49,380 bases of DNA from a virus. The position numbers and the translations under genes are program-made. Each line of letters opens with the position of its first letter. The first letter of the stretch is position 1. The notes beneath the pieces were generated by a model. That model had not been told where the DNA came from and made no database searches. It worked only from the letters and a program-made list of their open reading frames with translations. Below are positions 6,110 through 39,483 of the stretch, piece after piece. The stretch is from positions 1 through 49,380 of IMG/VR virus record IMGVR_UViG_3300021602_000165; one strand, 5' to 3'.

Positions 6110-6732
6110 TAGTAGACGCAGGTTTTTTAAACTCCTGGGAACATAAGGGCCATGTGTACGGAGAATGCATGAGTAAGTCCGACACAGACCTTATGTACGT
6201 ACACATTCCTAAGAATGCCAGCTCGTGGACAAAACCTAATCTACAAGACTTTAAGTGGGAATTTTATAACTATCACACAGACCATTTAAATAAACATGCC
6301 ATTGTTGTATTACGTGACCCAGTTGACCGATGGGTAAGTGGCATTGCAGAATACCTAGCATTATATCATCCAGACTTTATACTACACGACTTAGAAGGAT
6401 TGGCTTTAATATTTGATAGAATATGTTTTGACGACCACACCGAGCGTCAAGTAAACTTTATACACGGACTAGACACAGATCGTTGCACGTTTTTTAGATG
6501 CGATAGTTACTATAGAGAAGACTTTAGCACATTCTTAGATGAACACGGAATGCCTAATCGCTATCACAAATACGAGCCACAGCATGTCAGCGAACTAAGT
6601 CCAGTACGCAGTAAGTTTAAAAATATATTTTTAAAAGAGATACAAAATCCTAAATACCTCAAAGCGGTTAAAGATTATTTTGCCGCAGACTACAATTTAA
6701 TTAATAACATAAAGTTCTATGGATCAAGATAA
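6106..6732 (+). CDS. Sulfotransferase-family protein
   Basis: A 208-residue protein that starts at GTG 6106, overlapping the previous stop. YVHIPKNASSW near residue 27 matches the 5'-phosphosulfate loop of sulfotransferases, and VVLRDPVDRWVSG near 66 matches the 3'-phosphate-binding motif. Family role: transfer of sulfate from PAPS to a hydroxyl or amine acceptor, often a glycan. An APS-kinase-like gene at the far end of the window could supply PAPS. It overlaps the dpdA-like gene by 14 bases. The acceptor is unknown. Confidence 0.75.
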   Translation: MIVDAGFLNSWEHKGHVYGECMSKSDTDLMYVHIPKNASSWTKPNLQDFKWEFYNYHTDHLNKHAIVVLRDPVDRWVSGIAEYLALYHPDFILHDLEGLALIFDRICFDDHTERQVNFIHGLDTDRCTFFRCDSYYREDFSTFLDEHGMPNRYHKYEPQHVSELSPVRSKFKNIFLKEIQNPKYLKAVKDYFAADYNLINNIKFYGSR

Positions 6733-8338
6733 CTTAACCGCTAAACAAAAAGACTACGCTATATTTTTACCTGCTATCAGTGGCTTCTATGCTACCTTTG
6801 TAGGTAAACAGCGAGTCAACAACGACTATGTAGACCCTGCACGTTTTCCGCAGGGTATAACGGATATGGAACAACTTAACTGGCTGAACAACCAGAAAGC
6901 GTTGTTCCCATATAAGTGGTCGCTTTACTCCGGCGGCCACGCCAACCTTGACCTTAATAAGCCAGATATGGCTGAGGACATGGTTCGCAATCGCGACCCA
7001 AACACGCTAGTCTTAGGAGACTCTGGAGGTTTCCAGATTGCCAAAGGACTATGGGAAGGCGATTGGAAAGCCAACTCAGGATGCCCGAAGGCCCAGAAAA
7101 AACGAGAACAAGTTTTAGCTTGGCTGGACGGCATTGCTGACTACGGTATGACTCTTGATATCCCAACTTGGGTTATACATGATAAAAATGCAGGGCAGAA
7201 ATGCGGTATTAGTACATTACAGGAAGCTGTAGACGCTACCAAGTTTAATAATGAATACTTCATGAAACATCGTAAGGGCATTAATAACGGTGGCGTCAAG
7301 ATATTAAATGTGTTACAAGGTGCCAGCCACGATGATGCTGAACAATGGTACCAACTAATGAAAGACTATTGTGATCCTGTAAAGTATCCCGACACACATT
7401 TCAATGGGTGGAGTATGGGTGGTCAGAATATGTGTGATGTTGAGTTGGTATTAAAACGACTAGTATCATTGCGGTATGATAATTTACTGCAAGAAGGTAT
7501 ACATGATTGGATGCACTTCCTGGGCACAAGTAAATTAGAATGGGCTGTATTATTAACTGTTATACAAAGGGCAGTAAGAAAACATGTCAACCCCAAATTT
7601 ACAATTAGCTTCGACTGTGCCAGCCCATTTTTGGCCACAGCTAACGGGCAAGTTTACTTTGAAAACGTCTTTCCTCAAGACGAGAAATGGTCGTATAGGA
7701 TGGCTCCATCAGCTGACAATAAAGCATACGCCCTTGACTCGCGCAAGTGGAGTGACGGAGTTGTACAAGACGGCATATACCCAAGATGGGAGGATAGTCC
7801 AATTAGTAATCTGTTACAGATGAAGGATATCTGTATCTATAAGCCTGGTGTAGCCAAAGCAGGCGTTACGTTAACTGAGCATAATTTTAAAGATCCCGAG
7901 ATGTACGATGTATTACCCGATGCAAATAAAAATGGCAAATGGGGCAAGACATCATGGGATAGTTTTAGTTATGCATTACTAATGGGTCATAATGTTTGGA
8001 TGCACCTAACTGCGGTACAAGAAGCCAACCGCAGATTTGATACGGGCGAGCATCCTGCAATGATGCAATATAGTACCGGAGATTATGCGTACTTTGAAGA
8101 TATCGTTGAAGCGATCTTTGCTGCACCAACTAAAGGAGATAGTCTAGAAATTATCAAATACTATACTAACTACTGGATGGAGATTATTGGTACCAGAGGA
8201 TTCAAAGGCAAGAAAGCATTAAGTGGTCGCACAATGGCCGCAAAGCACGTAGAAATTGAAGGTAACTTTGCTAAAGAGAAACCTAAGAAGAAAGAAAAAA
8301 CCAAACCTATACTGGACCCATCTATTTTTGAGGAATAA
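6719..8338 (+). CDS. dpdA: DpdA-like tRNA-guanine-transglycosylase-fold enzyme
   Basis: A 539-residue TIM-barrel protein of the TGT superfamily. VLGDSGGFQ carries D101, equivalent to the TGT general base, and ISFDCASPF carries D299, equivalent to the nucleophilic Asp of bacterial TGT (FDCV motif). NGWSMGGQN near 230 matches the substrate-loop position. The CxCxxC zinc site of bacterial TGT is not visible. Phage DpdA enzymes replace guanine in DNA with a 7-deazaguanine; FolE, QueD and QueE in this window support that role over tRNA modification. The C-terminus is Lys-rich. Confidence 0.78.
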   Translation: MDQDNLTAKQKDYAIFLPAISGFYATFVGKQRVNNDYVDPARFPQGITDMEQLNWLNNQKALFPYKWSLYSGGHANLDLNKPDMAEDMVRNRDPNTLVLGDSGGFQIAKGLWEGDWKANSGCPKAQKKREQVLAWLDGIADYGMTLDIPTWVIHDKNAGQKCGISTLQEAVDATKFNNEYFMKHRKGINNGGVKILNVLQGASHDDAEQWYQLMKDYCDPVKYPDTHFNGWSMGGQNMCDVELVLKRLVSLRYDNLLQEGIHDWMHFLGTSKLEWAVLLTVIQRAVRKHVNPKFTISFDCASPFLATANGQVYFENVFPQDEKWSYRMAPSADNKAYALDSRKWSDGVVQDGIYPRWEDSPISNLLQMKDICIYKPGVAKAGVTLTEHNFKDPEMYDVLPDANKNGKWGKTSWDSFSYALLMGHNVWMHLTAVQEANRRFDTGEHPAMMQYSTGDYAYFEDIVEAIFAAPTKGDSLEIIKYYTNYWMEIIGTRGFKGKKALSGRTMAAKHVEIEGNFAKEKPKKKEKTKPILDPSIFEE

Positions 8339-30766: not shown

Positions 30767-30795
30767 TTGACGTAAAAGAAGTGTTGTAGTATATT
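30767..30795 (+). promoter_or_regulatory. Sigma70-type promoter for the 30.8-34.9 kb cluster
   Basis: TTGACG (30767-30772), 17-base spacer, TATATT (30790-30795). A leader of about 60 bases with AGGGG before the ATG follows. Confidence 0.65.
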
Positions 30796-30861
30796 ATTAA
30801 GTATTGCCGATGGACATGTCATAGGGGCTACGCCGGAGGGAATCACAACTAGGGGAATATT

Positions 30862-32064
30862 ATGGCAACAGCCAATTTTATCGCAGTACAACCGCAGTCA
30901 TATGCGGCACAGCAAAATGCCCAGTATAACCACTCGGGCTCAAAGTTCGTAGATCTTGGCACAAGATTTAACGACACAATCTCAAACCTTCCACGCATTA
31001 AACAAACCGGCGCTCGAAGCATGATCACAAATGCCTGCAACGAGTTTATAAAAAAGCACAGCTACCTGACTTGCTTTGAAGATATGGATCTTGCTATTGC
31101 TGGCGAGACTTATATGTCAGATATCTTGATTGATATTACCATTCAGCGTATTCTTAATTTGCCTTGGTGTGCAGAAATTTTAACTAATTTCCGCGAAGTG
31201 CAAGCTGATCCAATTAAACTATACGAGGTTGTTGCTGGCGGTGATCTAGCAGATCGGTATCCTGTTGGTACTATACTGTTTGCCAGCTGGGACGCTCAAC
31301 ATACCGCTATTGTTTATTGGATCATTGCAGTAATGATCTTTAAGCAAGATCCTAAAAAAGTCAAGGTACCTAGTATTTTGTACAAAGTTAAAAACCGTGC
31401 AGACATCCGCATGAACTTTGTTGGCGGTAACAGCGACAAAGGAAAACTTACACTAGACAAAATTGATTTGTTCCGTCAAATGGTATTAGGTGTGCGACTT
31501 GACGGTAATACTGAACCAAAATGGGTCGAAGCTGAACTTAAACAACAACATCTCGAGGGTGCTGATTTGTTTGTAACAGCAGAAAAGTTCGGTGATACCC
31601 ATATGCCTGGGGCAATCAGTCGTATGGCAGAAATTGACAAGTACAGTAGCGATATTATCCGTAAGTTTGCCCTGTATACTACAACCATTCCTACACCACG
31701 TTCAATAGATTCGCAGGAAATTGAAATCATGTGTGCATGGTTTAACCTTGCCAAAGAAGATGGTATTGACTATACAGACAACGAAGTAGTTAGTATTGGC
31801 AATCATCTACATAGTCTTTTCAATGCCGACTTCCACGAATCTAGTCCGTTTTGGGGCAAAGTACGTACAGCATACGAGCATTGGCATAAAAAGTACTATG
31901 GCGGGTTGCCGTCTACTCATCAACCTAAGCATATGAAAATGAATAAGAATTGGAACACAGGTGGTACGTTCTTGTGGCACCAACTTAGCAAAACATGGGG
32001 CGGTCGTATTCCGCCACTTAATGCTAGTACACCGTTTATGCCTGCAGTAAAGGACTTGTACTAA
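30862..32064 (+). CDS. Unknown 400-residue protein, first gene of nuclease/methylase cluster
   Basis: 400 residues, behind AGGGGAA. I do not recognise the family. A segment VGTILFASWDAQHTAIVYWI near 140-159 looks like a degenerate DGQHR motif of ParB/DndB-type domains (strand, D-x-QH, helix). Residues 190 onwards hold helical segments, and the C-terminus is Trp/His-rich (TFLWHQLSKTWGGR). Size and promoter proximity suggest strong expression. A DNA-binding or gatekeeper role for the downstream enzymes is only a hypothesis. Confidence 0.75.
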   Translation: MATANFIAVQPQSYAAQQNAQYNHSGSKFVDLGTRFNDTISNLPRIKQTGARSMITNACNEFIKKHSYLTCFEDMDLAIAGETYMSDILIDITIQRILNLPWCAEILTNFREVQADPIKLYEVVAGGDLADRYPVGTILFASWDAQHTAIVYWIIAVMIFKQDPKKVKVPSILYKVKNRADIRMNFVGGNSDKGKLTLDKIDLFRQMVLGVRLDGNTEPKWVEAELKQQHLEGADLFVTAEKFGDTHMPGAISRMAEIDKYSSDIIRKFALYTTTIPTPRSIDSQEIEIMCAWFNLAKEDGIDYTDNEVVSIGNHLHSLFNADFHESSPFWGKVRTAYEHWHKKYYGGLPSTHQPKHMKMNKNWNTGGTFLWHQLSKTWGGRIPPLNASTPFMPAVKDLY

Positions 32065-32065
32065 T

Positions 32066-32662
32066 ATGGATATCTTAGAACAAAATTTAAAAGAAATTAG
32101 GCCTAAACGTAAGTCTAATGTTAAACGTAACGACAAGTCCTATGCAGATTGTTTAACCACAACTACATCAGAGCTCGAGCGCCTACTAGAACTATATCGT
32201 ACTACAGTTTTTGACGAAGATATGCGAGCGAGGCTACTACGTGATAGCATTGATCACCATATCCGTCGATATCATGGATACGCTATCCAAGGCAAGATTA
32301 ACTCACACTACCATCAAAGGGGTGTTAGTTTAAAAGCCAAGGATACAATCTTTGAACACGTTATCCCAGCGGCACAGGTTCGTGATTTATTAATCGAAAA
32401 CAAACTATCAATAAATCAAGCTCTTAACGTGCCTACATGCCGTGTATCACGCAAAGGTAACAGTTTGCTCAATGCCCGTGGTATGCACGATCGTAATACA
32501 GATCCTTGGAACTTTTTTAAACGCTACAAAACAGGCATGGCAGAATTAGACAAAGATGGTAATACAGTATTTCCCGAGTTTGAAGCATACAACGGACAAG
32601 GAATACCCAACCTAGATACGTGGACTTTGCGTGATCATTTTAACTTGTTTGCGATAATTTAG
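32066..32662 (+). CDS. Unknown 198-residue protein
   Basis: Starts one base after the 400-residue protein's stop. Basic N-terminus (EIRPKRKSNVKRNDK), helical centre with SELERLLELYRTTVFDE, then HIRRYHGYAIQGKINSHYHQRG and TIFEHVIPAAQVRDLL. The His/Arg-rich centre, with an EHVIP segment, is reminiscent of HNH-type nuclease surroundings (xxEHVxP), but no full motif is visible. Confidence 0.65.
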   Translation: MDILEQNLKEIRPKRKSNVKRNDKSYADCLTTTTSELERLLELYRTTVFDEDMRARLLRDSIDHHIRRYHGYAIQGKINSHYHQRGVSLKAKDTIFEHVIPAAQVRDLLIENKLSINQALNVPTCRVSRKGNSLLNARGMHDRNTDPWNFFKRYKTGMAELDKDGNTVFPEFEAYNGQGIPNLDTWTLRDHFNLFAII

Positions 32663-32670
32663 AGGACAAT

Positions 32671-33072
32671 ATGACAAATTTATGGGCACCCGAATGTGCA
32701 TTACCGGATTGCAACGAACAAGTGGGATACCACAAAAAATATAATAGGACAGGGCAACAAGCACCAGGATACAAGTGGAAGATGTTTTGCAATTATCACA
32801 GAGGAAAAGGAAAATTTATTGTTGATAAATGGAAACTCGATCAAGGGTGCTCTAACACCGATACACATCACAGTTTTATCTGTACCTCGTATATTACCAA
32901 ATCAGATCAACTTGATGTAAATCACATAGATGGTAATCGTCATAATAGCGATCCAAAAAATCTCGAGTTGCTTTGTCGAGTATGCCACCAGCGTGTGACC
33001 ACAGATAACGGACATCACTTAACTAGATACAGCAATCAAGTCAATCTAGATCCTGCATTGTTTGAATTTTAA
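32671..33072 (+). CDS. HNH endonuclease
   Basis: 133 residues behind GAGGA. The nuclease motif is LDVNHIDGNRHN (H85, D87), NLELLC (N97) and CRVCHQR (CxxC plus H106). Extra Cys at 9, 14, 40, 60, 71 suggest a further zinc site. Role: metal-dependent DNA cleavage; it could be a homing nuclease or part of the cluster's function. No intron or intein is seen around it. Confidence 0.82.
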   Translation: MTNLWAPECALPDCNEQVGYHKKYNRTGQQAPGYKWKMFCNYHRGKGKFIVDKWKLDQGCSNTDTHHSFICTSYITKSDQLDVNHIDGNRHNSDPKNLELLCRVCHQRVTTDNGHHLTRYSNQVNLDPALFEF

Positions 33073-34218
33073 ATGATAGACGCTTACTACGATCAAATAT
33101 GTCAGGAGTGGGGAGTAATTCCCTCTTCCGATGTATGTACTGGATACGAATCGGTGTTGCCCAGCCTACAAGCATTAAGTAAAGAAGCATGGTTACTTGC
33201 CAACGACGCTGGCAAGGAACAAATACAACAAGAAGTATTTGACATCTATCGCCAGGTAAACATTGTTCCTGTTACTTACTACAGCCTTGAAGGTTGCCGC
33301 AAACAATTAGTCGAATTATCAAATAAAAAGAAATTAGTCCAAGATCGCACACTTGGCGTTGGCAACAACGAAGGACTGGCTTTTGGCAGATTCTGGTTTC
33401 CAAATATGCAAGATGCAAAATGGAATACCAATGCAACTGTAAGCATACGTGCCCGCTTCAATCATGATAATAAACTTAAACGTGCAATTAAGTTATGCTA
33501 TGTACATCGTGACGAGGGCATTGATAGTGTCATCCCAAAGAATCTACGTAGAGCATTGGAACTAGTCAACGGCGGCACAATACAAAACTTTAAGCCAATG
33601 AATGCCAGAGCCATTTGGGAATACATCTGTCCTAGCTTTATGGGTAGTGTGTTAGACTTTTCAAGTGGTTATGGCGGACGTATGATGGGTGCAATGACCA
33701 GCCGTATGCGATATCATTACACTGGCATAGATCCAAACACCCAAACATACCAAGGTCTCAATGCCCTTGGGTCGTTGCTACATACATCTGGGTTGGGCTT
33801 AGGTTACGAAATGCACAATATACCTAGCGAAGAATTTAATCCAGTTGAGGGCGCATACGATGCGGCTTTTTCAAGTCCGCCATACTTCAATCTTGAAACG
33901 TACACAGACGAACCAACACAATGTATGAATCGTTACCCTGGATTGGATTTATGGTTTGAAGGTTATGTAGTGCCTACATTAAAGATGATCTACAAAGGGT
34001 TAGCAAGCGACGGCATTTATGCTGTTAACATTGCCGATTATAAGAACGGTAAAGATCAGTTTGCCATTGTTGATCGTTGGAAAGCGATTAGCGGGCAAGT
34101 GGGATTTAAATATGTGGAACAGATAGATATGCTACTAAATGTTCGTCCCGGTGTTGGTAATAACAAATTAGAAAAGGCCTACAAGTCAGAAGGTATTTAC
34201 TTATTTAGAAAAGTGTAG
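33073..34218 (+). CDS. DNA methyltransferase (N6-adenine/N4-cytosine type)
   Basis: 381 residues, starting directly after the HNH stop. Motif I VLDFSSGYGG lies near 194-203 and the catalytic motif IV SSPPYF near 267-272, followed by IYAVNIADYKNG. The order I then IV fits alpha- or gamma-class amino-methylases. The 190-residue N-terminal region is unassigned and may hold recognition functions. Flanked by two nuclease genes. Confidence 0.8.
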   Translation: MIDAYYDQICQEWGVIPSSDVCTGYESVLPSLQALSKEAWLLANDAGKEQIQQEVFDIYRQVNIVPVTYYSLEGCRKQLVELSNKKKLVQDRTLGVGNNEGLAFGRFWFPNMQDAKWNTNATVSIRARFNHDNKLKRAIKLCYVHRDEGIDSVIPKNLRRALELVNGGTIQNFKPMNARAIWEYICPSFMGSVLDFSSGYGGRMMGAMTSRMRYHYTGIDPNTQTYQGLNALGSLLHTSGLGLGYEMHNIPSEEFNPVEGAYDAAFSSPPYFNLETYTDEPTQCMNRYPGLDLWFEGYVVPTLKMIYKGLASDGIYAVNIADYKNGKDQFAIVDRWKAISGQVGFKYVEQIDMLLNVRPGVGNNKLEKAYKSEGIYLFRKV

Positions 34219-34230
34219 TATACTGATAGC

Positions 34231-34878
34231 ATGTCAAAATTAGCCAGAATACTTGCACAAAATATTAGATCCGGATCCGGCAACCACGGATTAACAGAAG
34301 ACCAATTATACGAAATATTCCATCCAGTTAATAACGTTGACCAATTGGCCTACAGTCTATACAAATGTGCCGAAGTAAGTGGCAAGAGTGCATTTACCAC
34401 GCAGTTGGTTACGTTAAGTAGGCCATTGTTATCAGACTTTACAGCATGGCATCAAATTGACGAACCATGGAACGAATCATGGAACTTTGATAAAGCTCAC
34501 CCAGGATGCTACATATATGGATTGTTTGAAACTGTAGTGCCAGCTGGGCCAGCTGATTTTTTAGACAGTAATGTATTTTACATTGGCGAATCACGTGCCA
34601 CCAGTAGGCATAGTATGTTGGGGAGACGCACAGATTTTAAAGGTACTGTACGCAATGATCGATTGAGTCCATATGGTTGTGGTACAGCATTTAAAATGCA
34701 CTTTGGCAAAGATAAGATTAATTACGTGCATCAAGCATATCTGCCAATGCACCCAAGTTACTGCAAAACCACAGAGTTAGATTTGTTAGCAGAATACTAC
34801 AAAAAATATCAGCAAATACCAGCATGTAACCCACCTCTTGATTCCACTAAAGTAATAAAGCACTTAAAAAATCAGTAA
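34231..34878 (+). CDS. GIY-YIG nuclease-like protein
   Basis: 215 residues. The GIY part is GCYIYGLFE (near 92-100), the YIG part VFYIGES (115-121), followed by an Arg-rich LGRRTDFKG and a later acidic TTELDLLAEYY that can supply the metal-binding Glu. Residues 1-85 are an extra helical region. A TATACT box (34219-34224) with TTTACT 17 bases before it would give a leaderless transcript; no ribosome site is seen. Confidence 0.65.
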   Translation: MSKLARILAQNIRSGSGNHGLTEDQLYEIFHPVNNVDQLAYSLYKCAEVSGKSAFTTQLVTLSRPLLSDFTAWHQIDEPWNESWNFDKAHPGCYIYGLFETVVPAGPADFLDSNVFYIGESRATSRHSMLGRRTDFKGTVRNDRLSPYGCGTAFKMHFGKDKINYVHQAYLPMHPSYCKTTELDLLAEYYKKYQQIPACNPPLDSTKVIKHLKNQ

Positions 34879-34958
34879 AATCAATGACTTACGTAGCCTA
34901 TATTTTGGTTGTCCAATAAATCCATTTCGTTTACAATAGCTTCATACAGTTAGATAAC
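34878..34958 (+). repeat. Promoter-leader cassette, copy 1
   Basis: AAATCAATGACTTAC (34878-34892), then a promoter, then CATACAGTTAGATAAC (34943-34958). The same three elements recur 326-327 bases downstream at 35204-35285 with the same internal spacing. Confidence 0.75.
34909..34937 (+). promoter_or_regulatory. Sigma70-type promoter with CCAATAAATC extension
   Basis: TTGTCC (34909-34914), 17-base spacer, TACAAT (34932-34937). The sequence overlapping the -35 end, CCAATAAATC, recurs at three other promoters in the window. Confidence 0.75.
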
Positions 34959-34967
34959 GGAGCAAAA

Positions 34968-35201: not shown

Positions 35202-35203
35202 TG

Positions 35204-35285
35204 AAATCAATGACTTACAACGTCTTTATTTTCGGTTGACCCGAAATTCAGGTCCGTGTATAATGTATACATACAGTTAGATAAC
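35204..35285 (+). repeat. Promoter-leader cassette, copy 2
   Basis: AAATCAATGACTTAC (35204-35218) and CATACAGTTAGATAAC (35270-35285) frame a promoter, matching copy 1 at 34878-34958. Confidence 0.75.
35236..35264 (+). promoter_or_regulatory. Sigma70-type promoter
   Basis: TTGACC (35236-35241), 17-base spacer, TATAAT (35259-35264). Near-consensus; drives the gene at 35297. Confidence 0.82.
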
Positions 35286-35296
35286 AGGAGAAACAA

Positions 35297-36674: not shown

Positions 36675-37778
36675 ATGGCCGTGACTGAAAACCGTAGTGT
36701 AACCCCAAACGAAGCACGTAGTCGTGTTTTGCGTTGTTTTAAAAATAAGCGTCCTGTTTTCTTGTGGGGTCCTCCGGGAATCGGCAAGTCAGAATTGGTT
36801 GCTGGTTTGTGTGAAGATCTCGGCGGGCATATGATTGATATGCGACTGGGACAATGTGAGCCAACTGACATCCGTGGTATCCCGTTCTTCAATAAAAATA
36901 AAGAGGTAATGGATTGGGCTCCCCCAATTGAATTGCCTAGCGAAGAACTCGCTAAAAAGTATCCTATCATTGTGTTGTTCTTGGATGAGCTGAACTCAGC
37001 GGCTCCGGCTGTGCAAGCGGCAGCTTATCAATTGATTTTGAATCGTGGTGTCGGTACTTATCGCTTGCCGGACAATGTTGTTATGGTTGCCGCAGGTAAT
37101 CGCGAATCTGACAAGGGTGTTACTTATCGTATGCCAAGTCCTTTGGCGAATCGTTTCGTTCACTTGGAAGTGCGGACAGATTTCCAATCTTGGGAACAGT
37201 GGGCTGTCAATCACAAAATCCACAAGGACGTTGTTGGTTACATCGGTTTTGCTAAACAGGACTTGATGGACTTTGATCCTAAATCGTCAAGCCGTGCGTT
37301 TGCTACTCCGCGTAGCTGGTTCTTTGTGTCACAGTTTCTTGAGGACGATGAAGCAACCGATGCAGAGCTTGTAGATTTGATCTCAGGTACTATTGGCGAA
37401 GGACTTGCTATTAAGTTTATGGCACACCGCAAAGTGTCTGGGCAGATGCCAAAAGCAGAAGATATTTTGGCCGGTAAAGTCAAGGAACTCAAAGTTAAGG
37501 AAGTGTCAGCGATGTATTCGCTTACTATTAGCCTGTGCTACGAGCTCCAGGAACAGTTTAAGAAACTCGGTAAAGATAAACTGTCCGACTGGCACGCTCA
37601 AGCGGATCACTTCCTACGTTTTATGATGGATAATTTTACTACAGAGCTCGTTGTTATGGGTGCTCGTGTTGCGCTAACCACGTATAACTTGCCCATGGTT
37701 CCAGGTAAGATGAAATCGTTTGATGAGTTCCATCAGCGTTTTGGCAAATACATCATTGCCGCAAGTGGCAAGAACTAA
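36675..37778 (+). CDS. MoxR-type AAA+ ATPase
   Basis: 367 residues. Walker A GPPGIGKS (32-39), Walker B VLFLDELNSA (D104, E105), sensor 1 MVAAGNRE near 137, then PSPLANRF with an arginine finger region. MoxR ATPases act as chaperones for partner VWA proteins. The VWA/metallopeptidase gene is one lipoprotein gene downstream under its own similar promoter, the usual MoxR-VWA pairing. AGGAG ribosome site. Confidence 0.9.
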   Translation: MAVTENRSVTPNEARSRVLRCFKNKRPVFLWGPPGIGKSELVAGLCEDLGGHMIDMRLGQCEPTDIRGIPFFNKNKEVMDWAPPIELPSEELAKKYPIIVLFLDELNSAAPAVQAAAYQLILNRGVGTYRLPDNVVMVAAGNRESDKGVTYRMPSPLANRFVHLEVRTDFQSWEQWAVNHKIHKDVVGYIGFAKQDLMDFDPKSSSRAFATPRSWFFVSQFLEDDEATDAELVDLISGTIGEGLAIKFMAHRKVSGQMPKAEDILAGKVKELKVKEVSAMYSLTISLCYELQEQFKKLGKDKLSDWHAQADHFLRFMMDNFTTELVVMGARVALTTYNLPMVPGKMKSFDEFHQRFGKYIIAASGKN

Positions 37779-37807
37779 GAATCCGTTAGTCACGGTCGGG
37801 GGCATTC

Positions 37808-38134
37808 GTGAGATATAAGTCCTCCGTTTTTATAGTGCTACTGCTACATGGTTGCGCGGCACCAGTTATGTTCGGTGTAGGTGCTACCAGTATAGCAGTA
37901 ACAGAAACTACTGGAAAATCTGTAACCGACCATGTTGTTAGTACAGCAAAGGAAAAAGATTGCAGACTCTCAAGATATTTTAAAGGTGAGCAAGTGTGCC
38001 AAGAAGTAGAAACTGTACGATCATCTGTTACTGTTAGTAGTCCAACAAGACCTATAATAATTGATTCAAACTCAACGATTAAATCGTATGAAGAGGTATT
38101 GGTAAGGCGGCGAAACACGTCTTACGTTAAATAG
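37808..38134 (+). CDS. Small lipoprotein
   Basis: 108 residues from GTG 37808. Hydrophobic signal FIVLLLHGCAAP with lipobox LHGC, so lipid attachment at C16 is predicted. The middle (TGKSVTDHVVSTAKEKDCRL, EQVCQEV) resembles small lipoproteins of Proteobacteria. The TTGK/DHVVS pattern could have been acquired from a host. An outer-membrane spanin partner role is possible but no inner-membrane spanin is seen. Confidence 0.6.
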   Translation: MRYKSSVFIVLLLHGCAAPVMFGVGATSIAVTETTGKSVTDHVVSTAKEKDCRLSRYFKGEQVCQEVETVRSSVTVSSPTRPIIIDSNSTIKSYEEVLVRRRNTSYVK

Positions 38135-38140
38135 TATTAG

Positions 38141-38170
38141 TAGACCAATAAATCAAAGTCGTGCTATACT
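38141..38170 (+). promoter_or_regulatory. Promoter with CCAATAAATC extension
   Basis: TAGACC (38141-38146), 18-base spacer beginning AATAAATCA, TATACT (38165-38170). The -35 is poorer than its relatives. Confidence 0.65.
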
Positions 38171-38199
38171 ATGTATATAAATTAATCAAAGGAAGAAAA

Positions 38200-39483
38200 A
38201 TGGCAAATCACGTAATCCATAATGTTGCAGTAGCAGAACCCGAAGCTACCGCACCGGTTCGTAAGCCCACAGATCCTAAAGTTGATGCCGCGGCACGTGA
38301 AAAATTGATTACTGCACGTATTGGACTCTTGCTCAAGGCACCGTTCTTTGGTAACCTTGCAACACGTATGACTCTAGTAAACGGTGACGACTGGTTGCCC
38401 ACCGCCGCAACAGACGGACGTAAATTTTACTACAATTCGGAATTCGTCAACAACATGCCTTTGAAGCAGGTTGAGTTTTTGGTTGGGCATGAAGTATTAC
38501 ATGCCGTATATGATCATATGGGACGACGCGGCGAACGTAATCCTAAAGTGTGGAACATTGCAGATGACTTTTGCGTTAATGCAGATTTGATTGAACAAAA
38601 GATTGGCGAAAAGATTACCGTATGCGGCGTATTGTATGATCCCAAATACAAAGGTATGTCAGCAGAAGAAGTATACGATGACCTAATGAAGAATGCCAAC
38701 AAAATTAATTTTGATGATCTTGCTAAATTGTTGCTGGACGAGCACTTAGATGGTGACGGTGACGGTGACGGTAAAGAAGGCGACAAAGATGGTAAGGGTC
38801 GTCCTAAATTGTCCGATGCTGAGAAAAAAGCCATCCGCGATGAGATTAAAGAAGCAGTAATCTCAGCTGCCAATGCTGCTGGCGCAGGTAACTTGCCAAG
38901 TGGCGTCAAGCGTCTTATTAAGGACATGACGGAACCACAAATTAGTTGGAAGGAATTGTTGGAGCAACAAATCCAAAGCACCATTAAAAATGATTTTTCT
39001 TTTGCTCGTCCAAATCGTAAGGGCTGGCACATGGATGCTATTCTTCCGGGAATGAAGCCAGGCGACACCATTGACATTGCTGTTTGTATTGACCAATCGG
39101 GTAGTATTAGCGGAGAAGATAGCAAGTGTTTCCTAAGTGAGATCCGTGGCATCATGGAAGCATACGATGAATACAAGATTCGCTTGTGGTGCTTTGATAC
39201 TGAAATTTACAACGATCAAGAGTTTAACAGCGACAATATGAAAGACATCGCCGAATACGAACCAATGGGCGGTGGCGGTACTGACTTTATGGCAAATTGG
39301 ACTTACATGAAAGAACATGGTATCGAACCCAAGAAGTTTATCATGTTTACAGATGGTATGCCGTTTGGTGAATGGGGCGATGAAAATTATTGTGATACCG
39401 TTTGGATTATTAAAGGTAATCCCGGATGTGAGCCACCATGGGGCATTTGGGCGCACTACGAAGAAGAGGCTAAAAAGAAATGA
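38200..39483 (+). CDS. Metallopeptidase-like plus VWA-domain protein (DUF2201 type)
   Basis: 427 residues from ATG 38200 behind AAAGGAAG. The N-terminal domain has VGHEVLHAVYDH with zinc-protease HExxH (H97, E98, H101). A flexible Asp/Gly linker (DGDGDGDGKEGDKDGKG) lies near 185-200. The C-terminal VWA-like domain has MIDAS CIDQSGSIS (D298, S300, S302), a Thr in GGGGTDF, and FTDGMP. Family knowledge: VWA partners of MoxR ATPases. The catalytic role in phage is not established. Confidence 0.88.
   Translation: MANHVIHNVAVAEPEATAPVRKPTDPKVDAAAREKLITARIGLLLKAPFFGNLATRMTLVNGDDWLPTAATDGRKFYYNSEFVNNMPLKQVEFLVGHEVLHAVYDHMGRRGERNPKVWNIADDFCVNADLIEQKIGEKITVCGVLYDPKYKGMSAEEVYDDLMKNANKINFDDLAKLLLDEHLDGDGDGDGKEGDKDGKGRPKLSDAEKKAIRDEIKEAVISAANAAGAGNLPSGVKRLIKDMTEPQISWKELLEQQIQSTIKNDFSFARPNRKGWHMDAILPGMKPGDTIDIAVCIDQSGSISGEDSKCFLSEIRGIMEAYDEYKIRLWCFDTEIYNDQEFNSDNMKDIAEYEPMGGGGTDFMANWTYMKEHGIEPKKFIMFTDGMPFGEWGDENYCDTVWIIKGNPGCEPPWGIWAHYEEEAKKK

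What the first reader, a model, noticed from the sequence alone, without database searches (positions are those of the whole stretch)
30767..34878. Separately promoted cluster: two unknown proteins, HNH, DNA methyltransferase, GIY-YIG
Five genes run head to tail behind one good promoter. A methylase flanked by two different nuclease folds and two novel proteins is an unusual set. It could be a restriction-like or anti-competitor system acting on host or rival phage DNA, self DNA being protected by methylation. Nothing like a helicase or Type I/III subunit is seen.
Basis: partly seen in the sequence, partly recalled or inferred. Interest (0 to 1): 0.65.

Follow-up and report, generated by a model that had tools for sequence, protein, structure and literature searches.

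The report
Phage ParB-like protein plus nuclease cassette
A virus of bacteria carries a two-gene unit (a ParB-like switch protein followed by a likely DNA-cutting enzyme) with a DNA methylase and another nuclease beside it; the same pairing, with different cutting enzymes swapped in, recurs in dozens of distinct environmental phage lineages and looks like a phage-owned restriction system, though no activity has been tested.

Summary
The five genes are real and intact, but form three units, not one. (1) Gene 1 (400 aa) has a ParB/sulfiredoxin core (VIA Z 10.9) with the QR, D-x-QHT and FxxxN motifs of the DGQHR/GmrS domain; gene 2 (198 aa) is His-Me-finger-like (EHxxP...N). They are an obligate pair: in loci fetched with gene 1 alone, all 54 non-redundant copies with a downstream gene are followed by gene 2 (22) or an HNH nuclease (32); distant relatives use GIY-YIG-like proteins. 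Partners co-vary (r 0.76, 0.67); purifying selection is strong. (2) HNH and methyltransferase are exchangeable and loosely inherited (gene 2-MTase r -0.02); a close relative keeps genes 1-2 and lacks HNH-MTase-GIY as a block. (3) The GIY-YIG-like gene is mostly stand-alone elsewhere. Profile comparison picks GmrS as best outside match of gene 1, and GmrD (tied with one short match) for gene 2. Best reading: a phage-borne, GmrSD/SspE-like interference nuclease with swappable nuclease subunits, self DNA perhaps spared by methylation or 7-deazaguanine. No relatives of genes 1-2 were found in named phages or, for gene 1 by pattern scan, in bacterial genomes. Function is inferred.

The parts
30767..30795 (+). 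sigma-70-like promoter TTGACG-17-TATATT ahead of the cluster (putative)
   Evidence: 10 of 12 matches; frequency in the region not above shuffles. Close homology to relative L085 begins just downstream, at about 30803.
30862..32064 (+). A400: ParB/sulfiredoxin-fold protein with QR (95-96), D-A-Q-H-T (144-148) and FxxxN (186-190); predicted NTP-binding, DNA-sensing subunit
   Evidence: AF2 model pLDDT 91.5; VIA Z 10.9 Noc, 10.8 ParB, about 8 sulfiredoxin, 4.5 SspE for residues 78-197; motif columns; dN/dS 0.02-0.04
32066..32662 (+). B198: His-Me-finger-like putative nuclease (E97-H98-x-x-P101, N121-x-P-T), partner of A400
   Evidence: invariant motif columns; strand, helical insert, strand, helix arrangement in AF2 model, pLDDT 90; GmrD tied best of 62 profiles, aligned on EHxxP; no significant Foldseek match
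32671..33072 (+). HNH endonuclease with CxxC zinc sites; family recurs beside A400/B198/MT
   Evidence: Pfam HNH E 3.7e-5
33073..34218 (+). MT: amino-methyltransferase (N4-cytosine or N6-adenine class) with a conserved N-terminal domain of unknown function
   Evidence: invariant DFSSGYGGR and SSPPYF; phrog_12517 E 8e-10; PADLOC MTase_II E 6e-4; Vibrio phage homologue annotated N-4 cytosine-specific DNA methylase
34231..34878 (+). GIY-YIG-like protein; probably an independent mobile nuclease next to the cassette
   Evidence: motif reading in 7 sequences; relatives mostly away from A400/B198/MT; no profile support
32651..34903 (+). HNH-MT-GIY block, replaced in the close relative L085 by one TOPRIM-like gene
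   Evidence: nucleotide identity 93% up to 32651, resumes at 34903

Best explanation
Genes 1 and 2 are the two subunits of a phage-encoded interference nuclease that works like GmrSD/SspE. Gene 1 is a ParB/sulfiredoxin-fold (DGQHR-type) switch that binds a nucleotide and senses DNA; gene 2 is a His-Me-finger nuclease that it licenses. The adjacent HNH nuclease and methyltransferase are exchangeable members of the same cassette family: the HNH adds or substitutes a cutting activity, and the methyltransferase (elsewhere an ABC-ATPase/GNAT gene) modifies DNA. The likely target is host or rival-phage DNA that differs in modification from the phage's own. The GIY-YIG-like gene is probably an independent neighbour. 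Shown computationally: intact genes, ParB/Srx fold and motifs, the obligate pairing with a nuclease-type gene, covariation and purifying selection. Inferred: nuclease activity of gene 2, nucleotide control, target, self-protection and role.
For: Fold and motifs: A400 residues 78-197 align to Noc/ParB at Z 10.9-10.4 and to sulfiredoxin at about 8, with the three DGQHR-domain motifs (QR, DGQH, FxxxN) that PMC4619093 lists for GmrS. Pairing: in A400-fetched loci, 54 of 54 non-redundant copies with a downstream gene are followed by HNH (32) or B198 (22). Over all 89 non-redundant A400 relatives nearly every downstream gene is HNH, B198 or GIY-YIG-like. All 81 HNH/B198 hits among 1671 genes lie within two genes of A400, none elsewhere. 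Covariation: A400-B198 r 0.76, A400-HNH 0.67, 0 of 2000 permutations, against A400-MT 0.20. B198 occurs with two separate A400 clades. Profile comparison with 62 targets: GmrS is the best match of A400 outside its own family (p 9e-4 and 4e-4; next 0.04); GmrD is tied best for B198 (p 1.3e-3) on the EHxxP motif. dN/dS about 0.03 and 0.05. Third slot: MT, HNH, PD-(D/E)XK-like or ATPase-GNAT genes.
Against: GmrS/GmrD matches are weak (probabilities 19-34%), and a short c12 match ties with GmrD for B198. B198 has no significant structural neighbour and lacks GmrD's NxxFxxKK motif. Most A400-HNH pairs have no adjacent methyltransferase, and the MT family was found in only 15 of 43 large records chosen for A400, B198 or MT, so MT is not an obligate partner. 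Patchy distribution also fits a selfish homing element. No experiment exists.
Confidence: 0.5

Rival explanations
1. The A400-nuclease pair is a selfish homing module: the nuclease cuts the cognate empty locus in co-infecting phages and the ParB-like protein helps target or regulate it. MT and GIY are chance neighbours in an accessory hot spot.
For: Patchy distribution and diverse upstream neighbours; HNH and GIY-YIG are the usual homing folds; the GIY gene is stand-alone elsewhere; blocks swap cleanly between relatives.
Against: Known free-standing homing nucleases travel alone (established knowledge), whereas here a ParB/Srx protein is coupled to a nuclease-type gene almost without exception and the nuclease fold changes while the ParB-like protein stays. 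Modification-type genes share the slot.
Confidence: 0.22
2. A400 is a DpdB-like helper for putting 7-deazaguanine into phage DNA together with the TGT-like protein at 6719-8338; the nucleases are restriction partners of that modification.
For: DpdB is DndB/ParB-like (own knowledge); the TGT-like gene is in 32 of 43 records chosen for A400, B198 or MT; FolE, QueD and QueE are in the window.
Against: The TGT-like gene is present in large records without a detected A400 (345, 354 and 220 kb) and in at least 598 viral contigs against 192 for A400; the two genes lie 22 kb apart.
Confidence: 0.06
3. All five genes are unrelated accessory genes that happen to lie side by side.
For: HNH-MT-GIY is exchanged as a block; MT does not covary with B198 (r -0.02).
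Against: A400-B198 adjacency, covariation and exchange of one nuclease for another at the same position; HNH-B198-MT and B198-MT adjacency recurs in other contigs.
Confidence: 0.1
4. A400 is a CTP/ATP-dependent DNA clamp for genome organisation, host takeover or regulation, and the nuclease acts in phage DNA metabolism (host genome breakdown or packaging).
For: ParB/Noc are the closest solved folds; phage ParB-fold proteins bind CTP or ATP (PMC12704722).
Against: Accessory, patchy genes are unlikely to be core DNA metabolism; swapping of nuclease folds suggests conflict rather than housekeeping.
Confidence: 0.12

Closest known systems
GmrSD (GmrS = PF03235/DUF262, GmrD = DUF1524; type IV restriction)
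   Same: ParB/Srx-fold partner with QR, DGQ(H/Q) and FxxxN motifs plus a His-Me-finger-like partner with (E/D)HxxP, as separate adjacent genes; best profile matches outside the family
   Different: No Pfam family match; DxQHT instead of DGQQR; B198 lacks NxxFxxKK; the nuclease is exchangeable with HNH or GIY-YIG-like proteins; phage-borne, sometimes beside a methyltransferase
SspE (ParB/Srx-like N-domain plus HNH nickase)
   Same: NTP-binding ParB/Srx-like domain coupled to an HNH-type nuclease; SspE appears in the structural list (Z 4.5)
   Different: Two genes, no fusion; no phosphorothioation genes identified in the window
DndB/DpdB (DGQHR domain, PF14072)
   Same: Motif set and ParB/Srx-like core
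   Different: No PF14072 match; obligate nuclease-type partner; not tied to the TGT-like gene
Phage ParB-CTPase-fold proteins (PMC12704722), including DUF6551
   Same: ParB/Srx fold in phages, some fused to methyltransferases (bacterial ones to HNH); two A400 relatives brush DUF6551 (E 0.013)
   Different: That survey used the PF02195 model, which this family does not match; operon pairing with exchangeable nucleases was not seen in the passages read
Type II restriction-modification
   Same: Methyltransferase next to nucleases; MT relatives abut B198, PD-(D/E)XK-like and GIY-YIG-like genes
   Different: MT does not covary with the nuclease and is often absent; no recognition sequence known

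Membership tests
ParB/sulfiredoxin fold (A400) | ParB/Srx core domain | tested here: met
   residues 79-197, Z 10.9 to Noc, rmsd 2.6 over 96 residues
DGQHR/GmrS domain (A400) | QR, DGQ(H/Q)(R), FxxxN motifs | tested here: met
   Q95, R96, D144, Q146, H147, F186 and N190 at least 90% conserved; last residue T in one clade, R in another
GmrSD type IV restriction | GmrS subunit recognised by PF03235/DUF262 | tested here: not met
   no match at E 10 in the window and none among 51 A400 relatives; profile-profile only p 4e-4 to 9e-4
GmrSD type IV restriction | GmrD motifs (E/D)HxxPQ, L(G/A)NLxLL, NxxFxxKK | tested here: inconclusive
   EHxxP and N met, NxxFxxKK not seen; weak profile match on EHxxP
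GmrSD type IV restriction | cleavage of glucosyl-hmC or otherwise modified DNA, NTP dependent | not testable with these tools
   needs biochemistry
DndB (PF14072) | match to the family model | tested here: not met
   no match
DpdB-like 7-deazaguanine helper | obligate co-occurrence with the TGT-like gene | tested here: not met
   TGT-like gene without detected A400 in large records; records may be incomplete
HNH endonuclease (gene 3) | HNH motif and Pfam model | tested here: met
   PF01844 24.2 bits, above cut-off 21.4; N-H...N...H with CxxC
DNA amino-methyltransferase (gene 4) | SAM motif I and (S/D/N)PP(Y/F/W) motif IV | tested here: met
   invariant in 29 relatives
Type II R-M system | obligate, co-inherited MTase and REase pair | tested here: not met
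   B198-MT r -0.02, n 13; MT family absent from most A400/B198-bearing large records
GIY-YIG nuclease (gene 5) | GIY...YIG, R, E, N motif set | tested here: inconclusive
   motif residues conserved in 7 sequences; no Pfam or PDB profile support

The most novel reading that the evidence does not exclude
A previously undescribed class of phage-owned interference systems: one ParB/sulfiredoxin-fold switch family operating with interchangeable nuclease subunits (His-Me, HNH, GIY-YIG-like) and optional DNA-modifying genes, used by environmental phages against rival phage or host DNA.
Probability: 0.35. Interest if true: 0.8.

Novelty: new variant of a known kind. Interest (0 to 1): 0.6.

Why it matters
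If the reading holds, many aquatic phages carry their own GmrSD/SspE-like nucleases, built as a fixed ParB-like sensor with a swappable cutting subunit. That would give a testable handle on virus-virus competition in one cell and on how ParB-fold switches license nucleases. The core pair was not recognised by the Pfam, PHROGs, NCBIfam or PADLOC models used, nor found in named phages by sequence search, so it is missed by standard annotation.

Tried and rejected
DNA-level search of named phages found nothing; protein searches with A400, B198, GIY and two distant A400 relatives found nothing in 50,697 named phages. The pattern scan for A400 in genome contigs gave no relative; it reaches only copies that keep one of two short motifs. 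Profile searches of the PDB with A400, B198, MT and GIY alignments gave no convincing hit. Foldseek and VIA with B198 gave only helical-bundle look-alikes; the best viral hit, a 175-aa protein of Synechococcus phage S-T4 (E 0.019), is most likely AXQ70418, which has a DH...SP...N pattern, but a motif scan of that genome found no DGQH-type protein and no FEHxxP-type ORF. B198 against the zinc HNH family by profile gave nothing. The DpdB idea was tested through co-occurrence with the TGT-like gene and lost support. The idea that all five genes are one unit was dropped after the L085 comparison. The assignment of c55, c181, c92, c131 and c205 as PD-(D/E)XK, and of c21, c28 and c137 as GIY-YIG, is by motif reading only (Pfam hits weak or absent).
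Full report
The observation. Five + strand ORFs run from 30862 to 34878 with gaps of 1, 8, 0 and 12 nt: A400 (400 aa), B198 (198 aa), HNH (133 aa), MT (381 aa) and GIY (215 aa). A promoter-like site lies at 30767-30795, but such sites are as frequent in shuffled sequence. The same genes, at 100% identity, are in a 136.5-kb IMG/VR contig. The phage has a T4-type DNA polymerase, nearest among named phages to large phages of Sinorhizobium and Agrobacterium (47-51% identity).

What the genes are. HNH passes the Pfam cut-off. MT carries invariant DFSSGYGGR and SSPPYF motifs in 29 relatives, a weak match to Type II methyltransferases and distant homologues annotated N4-cytosine methylase in Vibrio phages. 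GIY has the GIY-YIG residues by eye but no profile support. A400 and B198 match no family.

A400 has a ParB/sulfiredoxin core. Its AF2 model (pLDDT 91.5) aligns at residues 78-197 with Noc (Z 10.9), ParB (10.8), PadC, KorB and sulfiredoxin (about 8), and with SspE at 4.5; Foldseek ranks the same folds first. The columns at least 90% conserved include Q95-R96, D144-x-Q146-H147 and F186-x-x-x-N190, the three motifs that a published analysis of GmrS lists for the DGQHR domain (PMC4619093). One A400 clade reads DGQHT, another DGQHR, a third EGQQ.

B198 is a probable His-Me-finger nuclease. Twenty-one sequences share invariant E97-H98, P101 and N121; the model (pLDDT 90) places EH at the end of one strand, with a second strand and helix after a helical insert. 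Structure searches give no significant relative, so this remains an inference.

Genome context is the strongest evidence. Viral scans gave 192 A400 and 178 B198 relatives, of which the best 80 each were kept. Counting only loci fetched with A400, and one copy per 90% identity, all 54 copies with a downstream gene are followed by HNH (32) or B198 (22). In those loci all 81 HNH and B198 genes lie within two genes of A400 and none elsewhere among 1671 genes. Over all 89 non-redundant A400 relatives the downstream gene is HNH 36, B198 35, GIY-YIG-like 11, another HNH type 2, and a few others. A tree puts B198 with two separate A400 clades, HNH with others and GIY-YIG-like proteins with still others (branches to the most distant clades are long). 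A400 and its nuclease covary (r 0.76 and 0.67, no permutation as high); MT does so only weakly (0.20 with A400, -0.02 with B198). These correlations also reflect shared phage ancestry; the controls with other phage genes are small (n 5-18, r 0.21-0.90).

The slot after the pair holds MT, HNH, ABC-ATPase/GNAT (c12), or PD-(D/E)XK-like genes. MT also occurs without A400: beside B198 alone, behind GIY-YIG-like or PD-(D/E)XK-like genes, or behind a helicase-like gene and an M-like protein. Of 43 non-redundant MT genes, 21 have A400, B198 or a predicted nuclease within three genes, 7 the helicase type, 15 neither. A natural experiment sharpens this: in L085, whose DNA is 93% identical across A400-B198, the block 32651-34903 (HNH-MT-GIY) is replaced by one TOPRIM-like gene. 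So A400-B198 is the core, HNH and MT are add-ons, and GIY is a loose neighbour: of six other records with a GIY relative, five show no A400, B198 or MT nearby and one does.

Selection keeps the core: dN/dS is 0.02-0.04 for A400 and 0.05-0.07 for B198 against close relatives (dS is near saturation, so the values are rough).

Relation to known systems. I collected 126 DGQQRLTT-containing proteins from bacterial genomes and compared profiles. Among 62 targets, GmrS was the best match of A400 outside its own family (p 9e-4 and 4e-4; next 0.04-0.05), aligned on the stretch around FxxxN; GmrD was tied best for B198 (p 1.3e-3), aligned on EHxxP. The GmrS and GmrD sets were picked by motif, not by Pfam scan. 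The match is specific but weak, and the Pfam test for GmrS fails, so I do not file the pair as GmrSD; I say it works like it. Searches of the held paper library found no description of this phage operon type.

Self-protection. The window has a TGT-like gene (DSGGFQ motif, read by eye; no family match) with FolE, QueD and QueE, suggesting 7-deazaguanine in DNA, which is known to protect phage DNA (PMC6884629, listed). It is present in 32 of 43 large records chosen for A400, B198 or MT, but also where no A400 was detected, so it looks like a background feature of these phages and not a partner. Methylation by MT is the other candidate.

Verdict. The unit is the ParB-like/nuclease pair rather than the five genes. 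Mechanism, target and role remain untested.

Noticed in passing
window 6719-8338: 539-aa protein with a TGT-like DSGGFQ motif; no Pfam, NCBIfam or PHROGs match; 39% identical to a hypothetical protein of Pseudomonas jumbo phages PA5oct and Paride; at least 598 viral contigs carry it. With FolE (17468), QueD (20767) and QueE (22385) it suggests 7-deazaguanine DNA modification.
   Followed up: partly
L027, L028, L030, L034, L035, L039, L048: The same methyltransferase family sits behind a 740-aa helicase-like gene (c19) and a 400-aa M-like protein (c18), an apparently different restriction-type set.
   Followed up: no
L084, L086, L089, L092, L106, L116, L205, L238: ABC-ATPase fused to a GNAT domain (about 350 aa, phrog_11143) sits directly or one gene after A400-B198 in place of the methyltransferase; possibly a Mom-like DNA modifier.
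   Followed up: partly
window 34884-34965 and 35203-35296: Two near-identical intergenic promoter modules (AATCAATGACTTAC ... TACAGTTAGATAAC) before the next two small genes; a similar one occurs in L085.
   Followed up: no
L085 7878-8414: TOPRIM-like 178-aa gene occupies the position of HNH-MT-GIY in a close relative.
   Followed up: no
window 36675-39483: MoxR-like AAA ATPase (phrog_1297) followed by a 440-aa protein that PHROGs calls 'HNH endonuclease' (phrog_1314) but which reads like a metallopeptidase/VWA protein; the pair is conserved in many relatives.
   Followed up: no
Synechococcus phage S-T4 (MH412654), AXQ70418: 175-aa protein that probably is the best viral structural match of B198 (E 0.019); shows a DH...SP...TKxxN pattern, a possible distant cousin.
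   Followed up: partly
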